From an uncultured Pelagibacteraceae bacterium (GTDB lineage: Bacteria; Pseudomonadota; Alphaproteobacteria; Pelagibacterales; Pelagibacteraceae): a DNA stretch of 64,000 bases. The position numbers and the translations under genes were made by a program. Below the pieces are notes generated by a model. It was given only the letters and a program-made list of their open reading frames with translations. It had not been told where the DNA came from and searched no databases. Below, piece after piece: positions 51,361 to 57,528 of the stretch (the stretch's first letter is position 1; the number at the start of each line of letters is the position of its first letter). Where the stretch lies: the NCBI GenBank assembly GCA_902552475.1, contig CACDJC010000001.1, positions 1 through 64,000 of the forward strand, given 5' to 3'.

Positions 51361-51408
51361 TATTTAAGTTTATTGTAGATTAGAAAATTTTATTGATATA
51401 ATAAAGTT

Positions 51409-51497
51409 GGAGGCCAATCAGGTGGATCTACCATGAACTCCCCCAGGCTTGAAAAAGAGCAAGGGTAATGAGTATTTTTCCAGGTTGATTGGTCTCC
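51409..51497 (+). ncRNA. ffs: Signal recognition particle (4.5S-type) RNA
   Basis: Terminal helix ggaggccaatca/tgattggtctcc; domain IV ccaggcttgaaaaagagcaagggtaa. Confidence 0.9.
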
Positions 51498-51502
51498 TTA
51501 AA

Positions 51503-53137
51503 ATGACAAATAATTCAAAAGTATTAGCTCTTAAATATAGGCCCCAAGTTTTTGAAGATTTAATAGGGCAAGAAGTAATTTCAGAAACAATTTATAATTC
51601 TATTAAGTCAAACAAATCAGCGAATGCTTATCTTTTTACAGGTATAAGGGGAGTGGGTAAGACAACTTTTGCTAGGATAGTTGCAAAATCTTTAAATTGT
51701 GAAAAAGGAATTGATAATTTGTGTAAAGAAAATTTTTGTGAGCATTGTAATTCTATTATAAATTCTAATCATATCGATGTTTTGGAAATGGATGCTGCTA
51801 GTAAAACAGGGGTAGACGATGTAAGAGAACTGATAGAATTTTCACGTTATGGACCTACATCAGCGAAATATAAAATTTTTATTATAGATGAAGTCCATAT
51901 GTTGAGCAAACAAGCTTTTAATGCACTTTTAAAAACTTTAGAAGAACCACCAAAATATTTAAAATTTATATTTGCAACAACTGAAATAAAAAAAATTCCA
52001 ATAACAGTTGTTTCAAGATGTCAAAGGTTTGATTTGTCAAGAATTAAATCTGAAGTTTTATTTAAATTTATAAAACAAATTAAAGATAAAGAAAAGGGAA
52101 GAGCTTCTGATGATGCTTTAAAATTAATAGTAAAAATTTCCGAAGGATCTGTTAGAGATGCTTTATCATTATTAGATCGTGGATTATTGAGCAATAAAGA
52201 AAATGAAGAGTTAGATTTAAAAAAAGCTCAAAAAATTTTTGGATATTTTGATAAAAGTTATTTAATAGATTTACTTGAAAATTTATTTAAAGGTGATGAA
52301 AAAAATGTTATAAAATTATATAAGCAAATTTATCAAAATGGTGTTGAACCAAAAAACTTTCTAAATGATTTCTTAGAAATATTGTATTATTTAAAAAATA
52401 TATCTACAATAAAAGTAGATGGAACAAATTTTTCTCTAAATGATGAGGATTTTGATAAACTTCTTCAAATTTCAAATCAACTTGATCAAAAGAATATAAT
52501 TTTATTTTGGCAATTTACCATTGAAACTATTGATGAATTGAATGTTGTTTCGAATCCGAATTTGTCAGTTGAAATGTTTTTAATTAGATTAATGTATCTC
52601 AAAGATTTTCAAAAAATTGAAGAAAATTATTATGAAAAAAAAGAAATTTTTCATAATTTAAATATATCTTCAAACAATAAAACAGTAAATCAAATTAAAA
52701 ATATATCTCAACAAGATAAGATTGATCCTAAAGTGAAATCTGAAAATATTACTTCAGAAACCAGAATTGATAGTTTTATTGAATTGATTAATTTATGTAA
52801 CAAAAAAAAAGAAATTAAATTAAAATATGAACTTGAAAACAATGTAAACCTTGTGACATTTTCTGAAGGTTTTATAGAAATAGCCTTTAATGATCAGTTG
52901 GATAAAGATTTTATAAAAAATTTATCAAACAAATTATATGAATGGACTAATATTAGATGGATAATCTCATTATCAAAAAAAGAGGGAGCAATTTCAAAAA
53001 AGCAACAAGAAGAAATAAATAAAAAAAACCTTTTTTCTAAAGTAAAAAAAAGCGAAGTTTATAAAAAAGTATTAGAAACTTTACCTGATGCAGAATTGAT
53101 AAATGTAGATTTAAATGAGGAAAAAGAAGATGAATGA
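51503..53137 (+). CDS. dnaX: DNA polymerase III subunit gamma/tau
   Basis: LALKYRPQVFEDLIGQEVISETI, FTGIRGVGKTTFARIVAKSLNC, IIDEVHMLSKQAFNALLKTLEEPP; start at MTNNSK because the track start 51449 lies inside SRP RNA. Confidence 0.96.
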   Translation: MTNNSKVLALKYRPQVFEDLIGQEVISETIYNSIKSNKSANAYLFTGIRGVGKTTFARIVAKSLNCEKGIDNLCKENFCEHCNSIINSNHIDVLEMDAASKTGVDDVRELIEFSRYGPTSAKYKIFIIDEVHMLSKQAFNALLKTLEEPPKYLKFIFATTEIKKIPITVVSRCQRFDLSRIKSEVLFKFIKQIKDKEKGRASDDALKLIVKISEGSVRDALSLLDRGLLSNKENEELDLKKAQKIFGYFDKSYLIDLLENLFKGDEKNVIKLYKQIYQNGVEPKNFLNDFLEILYYLKNISTIKVDGTNFSLNDEDFDKLLQISNQLDQKNIILFWQFTIETIDELNVVSNPNLSVEMFLIRLMYLKDFQKIEENYYEKKEIFHNLNISSNNKTVNQIKNISQQDKIDPKVKSENITSETRIDSFIELINLCNKKKEIKLKYELENNVNLVTFSEGFIEIAFNDQLDKDFIKNLSNKLYEWTNIRWIISLSKKEGAISKKQQEEINKKNLFSKVKKSEVYKKVLETLPDAELINVDLNEEKEDE

Positions 53138-54062: not shown

Positions 54063-56213
54063 TTAACTTTTTCTAATAAGTCTATTTAGGTGTAAAAGCG
54101 GTTCAGTATAACCTGAGGGTTGAGACTTTCCATGAAATATTAACTCACAAGCAGCTTTAAATGCAATTGATTTGTCATAATTGGGAGACATATTTTCATA
54201 ATATGGATCATTAATATTTTGTTTATCTACAATTTTTGCCATTTTTTTTAATATTTCTAGAACTTGTCTATTTGAACATAATCCATGATGTAGCCAATTT
54301 GCAATATGTTGAGATGAAATTCTCAATGTCGCTCTATCTTCCATTAGTCCAATATTATTGATATCCGGAACTTTTGAACAGCCAATACCTTGATCAATCC
54401 ATCTTACTACATAACCTAAAATTGTTTGCGCAGAATTTGATATTTCAGAATTTATTTCGTCATTTGACCAATTTGGTCTTTCAATAATAGGTATAGTTAA
54501 AAGGTCAGACAACTTTGCTTGGTTTCTTTTTTTTAATTCTTTTTGTTTTCTGAAAATATTTATTTTATGATAATGCATAGCATGTAAAGCTGCAGCCGTA
54601 GGAGAAGGAACCCATGCACAATTCGCACCAGCATTTAAATGTCCAATTTTTTGTTCCATCATGTCTTTCATTTTATCAGGCATTGCCCACATACCTTTTC
54701 CAATTTGAGCGACTCCAGAGAAACCACATTTAATACCAATGTCTACGTTATTGTCCTCATAAGTTTTAATCCATTTAGATTTTTTCATATCTCCTTTTTT
54801 AATCATAGGTCCAGCTTCCATGGATGTATGCATTTCATCACCAGTTCTATCTAAAAATCCAGTGTTGATAAAAAAAGCTCTATTTTCTAAAGTTCTTATA
54901 CATTCTTTTAAATTTGCAGAAGTTCTTCTTTCTTCATCCATAATTCCACATTTAATTGTATTTTTTTTAATTTTTAGAACTTCTTCGACTTTAGAAAAAA
55001 TTGTATCAGTAAATTTAGTTTCTTCAGGACCATGCATTTTAGGTTTAACTATATAAATTGAACCTTTTCTAGAATTTCCTCTTCTTTTTAAATCATGTAA
55101 ACAAGCAGCTGAAGTCATAAATGCATCCATAATTCCTTCAGGCACTTCAGATCCATCATCTAATATTATTGCTGGATTTGTCATTAGATGCCCAACATTT
55201 CTTACAAGTAATAAGCTTCTACCATGTAATTTTAGACCCTTTCCTTTTTTTGAAATATAACTTCTGTCAGGATTAAGCTTTCTTTCCAGTTTTTTTCCAT
55301 CCTTTTCAAAAACAGCTTTTAAATCTCCCTTCATAAGTCCTAGCCAGTTTCTATAACATGACACTTTATCTTCAGCATCCACTGCAGCGACACTGTCTTC
55401 GTGATCACAAATTGTAGAAATTGCAGACTCTATAATAATATCACTTATTCCTGCAGCATCTCGAGCCGCGCTAAAAGCTCTTGGGTTAATAATTATTTCT
55501 AAGTGAAGATTGTTATTTTTAAGAATTATAGCTGAAGGTTTGTTCACCTCACCTCTATGGCCGACAAATTTTTCTAAATCAATTAAATCAAATTTTTTCT
55601 TTCCCTTAATAATTTTTAATTTATTTTTTTCAACTTCTAACCCAGTTATATCTTTCCAATTCAAATTTTTTATTGGAAAATATTTATTTAAAAAATCTCT
55701 AGTATATTTTATTACTTCTTGTCCTCTTAATGGATCATATTTTTCGCTACCACTTTCTTCTGACTCTATTATGTCCGATCCATATAAACTATCATATAAA
55801 CTTACCCATCTTGCGTTCGAAGCATTCAAGCTATATCTTGCATTCATAATGGGTACCACCAACTGTGGACCAGCAATACTAGAAATTTCTTCATCCAAAT
55901 TCTTTGTTTTTATTTTAAAATCTGGACCTTCTCTTTTTAAATATCCAATTTTGATTAAAAAATTTTTATATTCTTTATAATCAAATTTTTTTGATCTTTT
56001 TTTCTTATGCCAAAGATCTATTTCTTGTTGTAATGTTTCTCGAAATTCTAATAATTTTTTATTTTTAGGAGCTAATTCATGCACCACTTTATCAAAACCT
56101 TGCCAAAAATGAATTGTAGAGATGCTTGTTCCTTTTAAAAGTTCTTTATCGACAAAATCAAACAAAATTTTTGCAACTGATAAATTATTTATTTTTATAA
56201 ACTCTTCTTTCAC
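54063..56213 (-). CDS. glcB: Malate synthase G (GTG start)
   Basis: NLHLEIIINPRAFSAARDAAGISDIIIESAISTICDHEDSVAAVDAEDKV; GDEMHTSMEAGPM. Confidence 0.95.
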   Translation of the reverse strand: MKEEFIKINNLSVAKILFDFVDKELLKGTSISTIHFWQGFDKVVHELAPKNKKLLEFRETLQQEIDLWHKKKRSKKFDYKEYKNFLIKIGYLKREGPDFKIKTKNLDEEISSIAGPQLVVPIMNARYSLNASNARWVSLYDSLYGSDIIESEESGSEKYDPLRGQEVIKYTRDFLNKYFPIKNLNWKDITGLEVEKNKLKIIKGKKKFDLIDLEKFVGHRGEVNKPSAIILKNNNLHLEIIINPRAFSAARDAAGISDIIIESAISTICDHEDSVAAVDAEDKVSCYRNWLGLMKGDLKAVFEKDGKKLERKLNPDRSYISKKGKGLKLHGRSLLLVRNVGHLMTNPAIILDDGSEVPEGIMDAFMTSAACLHDLKRRGNSRKGSIYIVKPKMHGPEETKFTDTIFSKVEEVLKIKKNTIKCGIMDEERRTSANLKECIRTLENRAFFINTGFLDRTGDEMHTSMEAGPMIKKGDMKKSKWIKTYEDNNVDIGIKCGFSGVAQIGKGMWAMPDKMKDMMEQKIGHLNAGANCAWVPSPTAAALHAMHYHKINIFRKQKELKKRNQAKLSDLLTIPIIERPNWSNDEINSEISNSAQTILGYVVRWIDQGIGCSKVPDINNIGLMEDRATLRISSQHIANWLHHGLCSNRQVLEILKKMAKIVDKQNINDPYYENMSPNYDKSIAFKAACELIFHGKSQPSGYTEPLLHLNRLIRKS

Positions 56214-56283
56214 GAAATTTTTACCTCATTTTTATATTAACTTAGGTTTCAATTTTAGAAGAAATTAATTTACTTCTAATAAT

Positions 56284-56367
56284 CTTATTTTTCAGCAAAC
56301 CCAGCCTATTTTGAACTTAAATAGTTCATTATGTACTACTTTTTGTAGTTTTAGCCGATAAAATAAG
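56284..56367 (-). promoter_or_regulatory. Candidate structured 5'UTR RNA (three-way junction) of glcB
   Basis: Manual pairing on minus strand: closing helix 56354-56367 with 56284-56296 (13 bp, one bulged A, one G.U); hairpins 56335-56349 and 56312-56328. Confidence 0.5.
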
Positions 56368-56421
56368 TTATAAATTTTTAAACATTTTATTGCCTTTTTT
56401 AAATATAATAAAGCTTTTTTA

Positions 56422-57528
56422 ATGAAAAATTATTTAAATTTCGAAACAGAGGTAAAAAATCTTGAAAATGAACTTGAGCAATTAAAAGATCCTTATAATC
56501 AAGAGGGACTATCAGAGGTAGATACCTTAAAAATTTCTAAGGTTGAAAAAGAAATTGCGGAAAAATTAGAAAAAATATATTCAAATTTAGATCCTTGGCA
56601 AACAGCATTAGTTGCGCGCCATGAAGATCGTCCAAAAGCAAAATTTTTTATAGATAACCTTTTTGATGAGTTTATTTCACTTTCTGGAGATAGGTTTTAC
56701 GGCGAAGATAAGTCTGTAATTACAGGTTTTGGAAAATTTAATAACAAGTCAGTTTTAATAATTGGTCAAGAAAAAGGAGAAGATTTAGAAAAAAGGATAG
56801 AGCACAATTTTGGCATGATGAAACCTGAGGGTTATCGCAAAACAATAAGATTAATGGATCTCGCAAATAAATTTAATATACCTATTATATCAATTATAGA
56901 CACTCCTGGAGCATATCCTGGAGTAGGAGCAGAAGAAAGAGGTCAGGCGGAAGCAATTGCAAAATCAATTGAGGCTTGCATGAAGCTTACTGTTCCAACC
57001 ATATCAATTATAATTGGTGAGGGGGGCTCAGGAGGTGCTATAGCTTTGGCATCTTCAAATAAAGTTCTTATGCTGCAAAATGCAATTTATTCTGTAATTT
57101 CCCCAGAAGGCTGCGCAACAATTTTGTGGAGAGATCCAAAAAAAACTTTAGAAGCAGCAACAGCAATGAAGATGTCTTCAAAAGATCTTCTAAGTTTAGA
57201 TATTATTGATGAAATTATTCCTGAGCCGATAGGAGGAGCACATAGAGATAAGGACTTAATATTAGATAATGTAAGAAATTCAATAGAAAAAAATTTAGAA
57301 TTCTTCAATGGAATGGAAAAAGATGAAATTTTAAATCATAGAAAAAATAAATTTTTATCAATAGGAAGATCCAAAGGCTTTTCAAGTAAGTCAGATGTTT
57401 CAAATAATATTTCAATGAAGGAAAATATAATTGAAAAATTAAAATTAAAATTAAAAAGAGAAAGTAAAACTACTTATATTTTAGCTACAATTTCAGTTTT
57501 TTTAATTATTTTATATATTTTTTTATAA
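56422..57528 (+). CDS. accA: Acetyl-CoA carboxylase carboxyltransferase subunit alpha, with C-terminal hydrophobic tail
   Basis: DTPGAYPGVGAEERGQAEAIA, IIGEGGSGGAIALA; about 50-residue C-term extension ending TTYILATISVFLIILYIFL. Confidence 0.95.
   Translation: MKNYLNFETEVKNLENELEQLKDPYNQEGLSEVDTLKISKVEKEIAEKLEKIYSNLDPWQTALVARHEDRPKAKFFIDNLFDEFISLSGDRFYGEDKSVITGFGKFNNKSVLIIGQEKGEDLEKRIEHNFGMMKPEGYRKTIRLMDLANKFNIPIISIIDTPGAYPGVGAEERGQAEAIAKSIEACMKLTVPTISIIIGEGGSGGAIALASSNKVLMLQNAIYSVISPEGCATILWRDPKKTLEAATAMKMSSKDLLSLDIIDEIIPEPIGGAHRDKDLILDNVRNSIEKNLEFFNGMEKDEILNHRKNKFLSIGRSKGFSSKSDVSNNISMKENIIEKLKLKLKRESKTTYILATISVFLIILYIFL

What the first reader, a model, noticed from the sequence alone, without database searches (positions are those of the whole stretch)
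56214..56421. Candidate three-way-junction RNA (possible riboswitch) in the glcB malate synthase leader
On the minus strand upstream of glcB, 56367-56354 (CUUAUUUUAUCGGC) pairs with 56296-56284 (GCUGAAAAAUAAG). This gives 8 bp, a bulged A, then U-A, C-G, G.U, G-C, C-G. It encloses two tandem hairpins, ACUAC-AAAAA-GUAGU (56349-56335) and UGAACU-AUUUA-AGUUCA (56328-56312), plus an unpaired AAAUAGGCUGGG joiner. The G.U pair would be A.C on the other strand, which favours a glcB transcript. Downstream are a further hairpin (UAGAAG...CUUCUA, 56278-56256) and an ACCU (56247-56244) that could pair with AGGU (56226-56223) and hide the GAGG Shine-Dalgarno about 10 nt before the GTG. SAR11 glcB is known to be controlled by a glycine riboswitch, but I see none of its core motifs (GGAGAG, CCGAAGG, AGGUAAA.GGAC). 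So this may be a different or strongly diverged switch on the same gene.
Basis: partly seen in the sequence, partly recalled or inferred. Interest (0 to 1): 0.78.

Follow-up and report, generated by a model that had tools for sequence, protein, structure and literature searches.

The report
Worn-out glycine riboswitch before glcB
In this SAR11 ocean bacterium the RNA leader of the malate synthase gene is the worn-down remains of the glycine-sensing switch that relatives carry in the same place: the glycine-binding heart is gone, but the clamp helix that closed the first sensor is still there and is stronger than before.

Summary
It is not a new three-way-junction riboswitch class. Between accA and glcB, close relatives carry a canonical tandem glycine riboswitch (RF00504) in an intergenic gap of almost equal length (215-218 nt; here 208). 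The near-invariant glycine-binding core is erased and Rfam finds nothing. The sister species (91% glcB identity) also lost the core, keeps P1 and a clearer aptamer-II remnant, but shares no new core with the window. Both genomes keep an intact tandem glycine riboswitch elsewhere (in the window genome directly before gcvT). Best reading: a vestigial tandem glycine riboswitch; glcB is probably uncoupled from glycine, with P1 kept as a ligand-independent 5' stem. Selection on P1 is suggestive, not proven. A new ligand is not excluded but is unlikely, because the interior is not conserved.

The parts
54063..56213 (-). glcB, malate synthase G, GTG start
   Evidence: open frame of 716 aa; orthologues found in 363 of 399 genomes of the genus; the GTG aligns with the ATG of relatives. 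The name glcB comes from the finding and from the same glcB/accA arrangement in HTCC1062
56422..57528 (+). accA, divergent neighbour that bounds the leader
   Evidence: the same divergent neighbour is found upstream of glcB in the relatives; HTCC1062 annotation
56354..56367 (-). P1 5' arm of the former aptamer I (CUUAUUUUAUCGGC)
   Evidence: 12/12 identical to L038 over UUAUUUUAUCGG; pair probabilities 0.92-1.0
56284..56296 (-). P1 3' arm of the former aptamer I (GCUGAAAAAUAAG)
   Evidence: 10/11 identical to L038 over CUGAAAAAUAA; the one change turns G-C into G.U
56335..56349 (-). hairpin at the place of aptamer-I P2 (ACUAC-AAAAA-GUAGU)
   Evidence: aligns with CUA-GAAAAA-UAG of L038; pair probability about 0.45
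56312..56328 (-). hairpin at the place of aptamer-I P3a (UGAACU-AUUUA-AGUUCA)
   Evidence: by position; pair probability 0.86-0.98. Interior alignment to L038 alone is not significant (p = 0.10)
56256..56278 (-). hairpin at the place of aptamer-II P2 (UAGAAG...CUUCUA)
   Evidence: linker plus aptamer II aligns with L038 better than shuffles, p = 0.0045
56216..56263 (-). weak match to SAR11 aptamer II, ending in AUGAGGU (56229-56223; AUGGGGU in relatives), which holds the GAGG Shine-Dalgarno
   Evidence: model R2, 11.2 bits, E = 0.0068 for the leader alone, E = 1 for 33.6 kb
56244..56247 (-). ACCU, possible partner of AGGU (56226-56223) over the ribosome-binding site
   Evidence: sequence only; four pairs, not tested on its own. 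The predicted ensemble leaves GAGG about 5% unpaired (A and GG), but mostly through other partners

Best explanation
The glcB leader is a vestigial tandem glycine riboswitch. An ancestor carried the usual SAR11 tandem glycine aptamers between accA and glcB. In the lineage of this genome and its sister AG-365-P13 the near-invariant glycine pockets of both aptamers were erased, while the P1 helix closing aptamer I, at the expected 5' end of the mRNA, was kept and in this genome lengthened to 13 bp. glcB is therefore most likely uncoupled from glycine, and the leader now acts, if at all, as a ligand-independent folded 5' UTR (a stem at the 5' end and a partly hidden ribosome-binding site). Shown: position, intergenic length, P1 identity, core loss, sister state, intact glycine riboswitch elsewhere in both genomes. 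Inferred: that the transcript starts at P1, that glycine control is lost, and that P1 is kept by selection.
For: Canonical tandem in the same slot, gap 215-218 nt, in L037-L044. P1 arms 22/23 identical to L038 with the same bulged A, against 66/119 in the rest (Fisher p = 9e-5), while fourfold sites of glcB between the two are 46% identical. Aptamer-II remnant: p = 0.0045 in the window and p = 0.0005 in the sister against shuffles; R2 model E = 0.0068 and E = 0.0002 in the two leaders. Tree: window and L035 are sisters (100/99) inside a part of the tree where tandem carriers also lie. Core erased: no Rfam or R1 match. Window P1 is stronger than all 39 canonical glcB P1 helices. Window and sister have the two lowest fold z-scores of 29 leaders. 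Intact tandem RF00504 in both genomes, before gcvT in the window genome.
Against: Aptamer I of the window is not significantly similar to canonical aptamer I outside P1 (p = 0.10; R1 does not score). The R2 hit is not significant when 33.6 kb are searched (E = 1). Only two genomes of this lineage are known here. The P1 3' arm alone gives only p = 0.02, and the 5' arm may be kept for the promoter or start site.
Confidence: 0.62

Rival explanations
1. Same ancestry, but the leader is now inert: it drifts without constraint, P1 is a chance survivor, and it is on the way to deletion as in neighbouring lineages.
For: Neighbouring clades have deleted the element (leaders of about 96 nt). The interior differs freely between window and sister (p = 0.90). 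The P1 3' arm alone gives p = 0.02.
Against: All 11 P1 pairs kept in 0.24% or fewer of neutral simulations; P1 stronger than in any canonical relative; window and sister the most structured of 29 leaders for their composition.
Confidence: 0.22
2. The scaffold has been refitted: P1 closes a new aptamer or other regulated fold that senses something else, in this species at least.
For: Stable fold, z -3.6 to -4.1; P1 and a perfect P3a-like hairpin; malate synthase would be a sensible target of glyoxylate or malate sensing (inference).
Against: No interior similarity to the sister, which prefers another fold; no family match; no other carriers found.
Confidence: 0.09
3. A leader of unrelated origin that resembles the old riboswitch by chance in AT-rich sequence.
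For: No significant Rfam match; aptamer I of the window fails its own model; helices as strong as P1 do occur, in 0.3% of tiles.
Against: 22/23 P1 identity to L038 with the same bulge, matching gap length, and aptamer-II remnants at the right place in window and sister.
Confidence: 0.05
4. Still a working glycine riboswitch that has diverged beyond recognition.
For: Same gene, same place, P1 kept.
Against: The lost bases are invariant in canonical glcB leaders across the genus (alignments A1-A3); window and sister differ from each other throughout the interior.
Confidence: 0.02

Closest known systems
Tandem glycine riboswitch of SAR11 glcB (RF00504; PMC2211319, PMC2704228, PMC5069720; Tripp et al. 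2009, not held here)
   Same: Same slot between accA and glcB, near-equal gap length, P1 of aptamer I with the same bulged A, helices at P2, P3a and aptamer-II P2, AUGRGGU before the start codon
   Different: The invariant glycine-binding core of both aptamers is gone; no significant model score; P1 longer and stronger
Ghost aptamer of singleton glycine riboswitches (PMC6944388)
   Same: A degraded glycine aptamer that keeps its P1 stem
   Different: There one aptamer stays intact and the ghost supports it through tertiary contacts; here both are degraded, so the kept stem has no known partner

Membership tests
RF00504 glycine riboswitch | Score above the family's gathering cut-off | tested here: not met
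   No RF00504 hit in the leader even at E up to 10; the only hits in the genome are the tandem on contig C2
RF00504 glycine riboswitch | Conserved core (GGGAGAG, GCCGAAGGAGCAA, CUCAGGCAAAAGGAC) | tested here: not met
   Absent by inspection and in alignments with relatives, apart from AGGC
RF00504 glycine riboswitch | P1-P2-P3 three-way junction | tested here: inconclusive
   P1 and a P3a-like hairpin robust, P2 about 45%; interior not conserved in the sister
RF00504 glycine riboswitch | Homologous position and descent | tested here: met
   Synteny, gap length, P1 identity, aptamer-II remnants, sister state and tree
RF00504 glycine riboswitch | Glycine binding and control of the gene | not testable with these tools
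   Needs in-line probing or a reporter assay
Ghost aptamer / singleton glycine riboswitch | One intact aptamer next to the degraded one | tested here: not met
   Neither aptamer is intact

The most novel reading that the evidence does not exclude
A riboswitch scaffold refitted in place: the P1 clamp of a dead glycine aptamer now closes a new structured regulator of malate synthase that senses something other than glycine.
Probability: 0.09. Interest if true: 0.8.

Novelty: new variant of a known kind. Interest (0 to 1): 0.42.

Why it matters
Glycine control of malate synthase by a riboswitch is a known feature of SAR11 regulation. The leaders sampled here show that control in several states: intact tandem, point-mutated tandem (L011), both cores erased but P1 kept (window and sister), internal deletion to a singlet (L186), stub (L188), gone (about 96-nt leaders). 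Ordering these as stages of one decay path is an inference. The window and its sister look like a late intermediate that shows which part of the RNA goes first (the ligand pocket) and which lasts (the P1 clamp), and they make it testable whether a dead riboswitch can leave a working 5' stem behind.

Tried and rejected
Rfam at loose thresholds gave only chance hits to snoRNA, miRNA and sRNA families. The leader as a DNA query finds in relatives only short pieces, best in the stretch near accA, so no further members of this lineage were found beyond AG-365-P13. A sequence-only model of the tandem did not find window or sister. Model R1 (aptamer I) does not recognise the window or sister leader. 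A shared new core between window and sister was tested and rejected (p = 0.90). Conservation of the three-way junction in the sister was tested and rejected. The promoter scan was uninformative. A first regular expression for canonical leaders was too strict and found none, then was corrected. Tripp et al. 2009 is not in the library.

Full report
Observation. Every sequence element in the finding is present at the stated minus-strand coordinates. The 208-nt stretch between accA (+) and glcB (-) folds better than dinucleotide shuffles: z -2.2 for the whole leader, -3.6 and -4.1 for the 89-nt P1-to-P1 part. The long helix is robust (pair probabilities 0.92-1.0), as is the UGAACU/AGUUCA hairpin; the ACUAC/GUAGU hairpin competes evenly with another helix. 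Rfam release 15 gives no match of note to the leader.

What relatives carry there. The window lies in a SAR11 genome: its glcB relatives are labelled Pelagibacteraceae. Orthologous glcB leaders were taken from 33 of the sampled genomes, from 80 GTDB loci and from further genomes of the genus. Most of the GTDB loci show core motifs of a glycine riboswitch (GGGAGAG, GCCGAAGGAGCAA, CUCAGGCAAAAGGAC) in this slot; in the genome sample most leaders do not. In HTCC1062 the same intergenic region between glcB and accA is listed with a glycine riboswitch (PMC2704228). The relatives L037-L044 (glcB about 81% identical) have it in intergenic regions of 215-218 nt. Others, including the 84% group (L002-L004, L036, L154-L178), lack it and have about 93-102 nt left.

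Homology of the leader. The arms are 22/23 identical against 66/119 in the rest of the leader (Fisher p = 9e-5), while fourfold-degenerate sites of glcB between the two genomes are 46% identical, with about 38% expected at saturation. L038 was picked as the most similar carrier, so this p value is somewhat optimistic. The two hairpins lie where P2 and P3a lie, but the aptamer-I interior as a whole is not significantly similar (p = 0.10). Downstream, linker plus aptamer II aligns better than shuffles (p = 0.0045). A covariance model built from 11 canonical SAR11 aptamer-II sequences places its best leader match at 56216-56263 (-), 11.2 bits, E = 0.0068 for the leader; that is E = 1 when 33.6 kb are searched, so it counts only because it falls in the expected place. 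Aptamer I of the window does not score.

The sister species. L035/L153 (AG-365-P13; glcB 91% identical, 100/99 support as sister) has a 210-nt leader with P1 (UUUUUGGU/ACCGAAAA, pair probabilities 0.72-1.0), no aptamer-I core, and a clearer aptamer-II remnant (17.7 bits, E = 0.0002 in the leader, 0.03 in 33.6 kb; p = 0.0005 against shuffles). Its aptamer-I interior is no more similar to the window's than shuffled sequence (p = 0.90) and does not favour the three-way junction (-2.7 against -11.5 kcal/mol).

Is P1 under selection? For: neutral simulation from L038-like arms, with the AT-rich equilibrium of fourfold sites, keeps all 11 pairs in 0.24% of runs on the shortest branch considered and in fewer on longer ones. 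Window P1 (-11.5 kcal/mol, 13 bp) is stronger than all 39 distinct canonical glcB P1 helices (median -5.6 kcal/mol). Window and sister have the two lowest folding z-scores (-2.99, -2.39) among 29 glcB leaders. Against: only two genomes of this lineage are known here, the helix was noticed because it is strong, the 5' arm may serve the promoter or start site, and the 3' arm alone gives p = 0.02. I call it suggestive.

Mechanism. In HTCC7211 the glcB transcription start lies 162 nt before the start codon, and the riboswitch reads began at the first base of the P1 domain or up to 15 nt before it; the paper adds that most of its riboswitch reads belonged to gcvT (PMC5069720). The P1 5' arm here begins 154 nt before the GTG, so the mRNA would begin with this stem (inferred). 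Without a glycine pocket the switch cannot respond to glycine in the known way. What remains is a fixed 5' stem and a ribosome-binding stretch (AUGAGGU here, AUGGGGU in relatives) that is largely paired in the predicted ensemble. A stem at the 5' end could protect the mRNA from decay; this is inference from general knowledge of bacterial mRNA and was not tested. Both genomes keep an intact tandem RF00504, in the window genome directly before gcvT. Glycine sensing is therefore not lost from the cell; it has most likely been uncoupled from malate synthase.

Relation to the known. This is not a member of RF00504: core and score were tested and not met. It is most likely a descendant of it. The nearest described phenomenon is the ghost aptamer of singleton glycine riboswitches, where one aptamer decays to its P1 while the other stays functional (PMC6944388). 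Here both have decayed, and the kept stem has no intact partner.

Verdict. The interest lies in a decay intermediate with a kept, strengthened clamp helix.

Noticed in passing
[quoted passage not shown] PMC6944388 considered this route to singletons but judged it unlikely. Seen.
   Followed up: partly
L011 1332-1495 (G028:C14, glcB leader): A tandem glycine riboswitch with several changed core bases (e.g. GGGAGAG to GUAGAG, GGAC to AAAC) that still scores 61.7 and 68.8 bits: possibly an early stage of decay.
   Followed up: partly
L188 (G114:C9, glcB leader): Only a stub, CUAGAGAGACUA, of aptamer I is left in a 127-nt leader.
   Followed up: no
L184 (G228:C2, glcB leader of 206 nt): No riboswitch, but a perfect 9-bp helix CUCAAUAAA/UUUAUUGAG read by eye from the sequence; overall fold z only -1.35.
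   Followed up: no
window 51407-51502 (+): Bacterial small SRP RNA (46.4 bits) ends one base before codon 19 (ATG) of the mechanically called ORF at 51449-53137, which by its order next to the SRP RNA is dnaX (HTCC1062 order). The gene therefore most likely starts at 51503, not at 51449.
   Followed up: no
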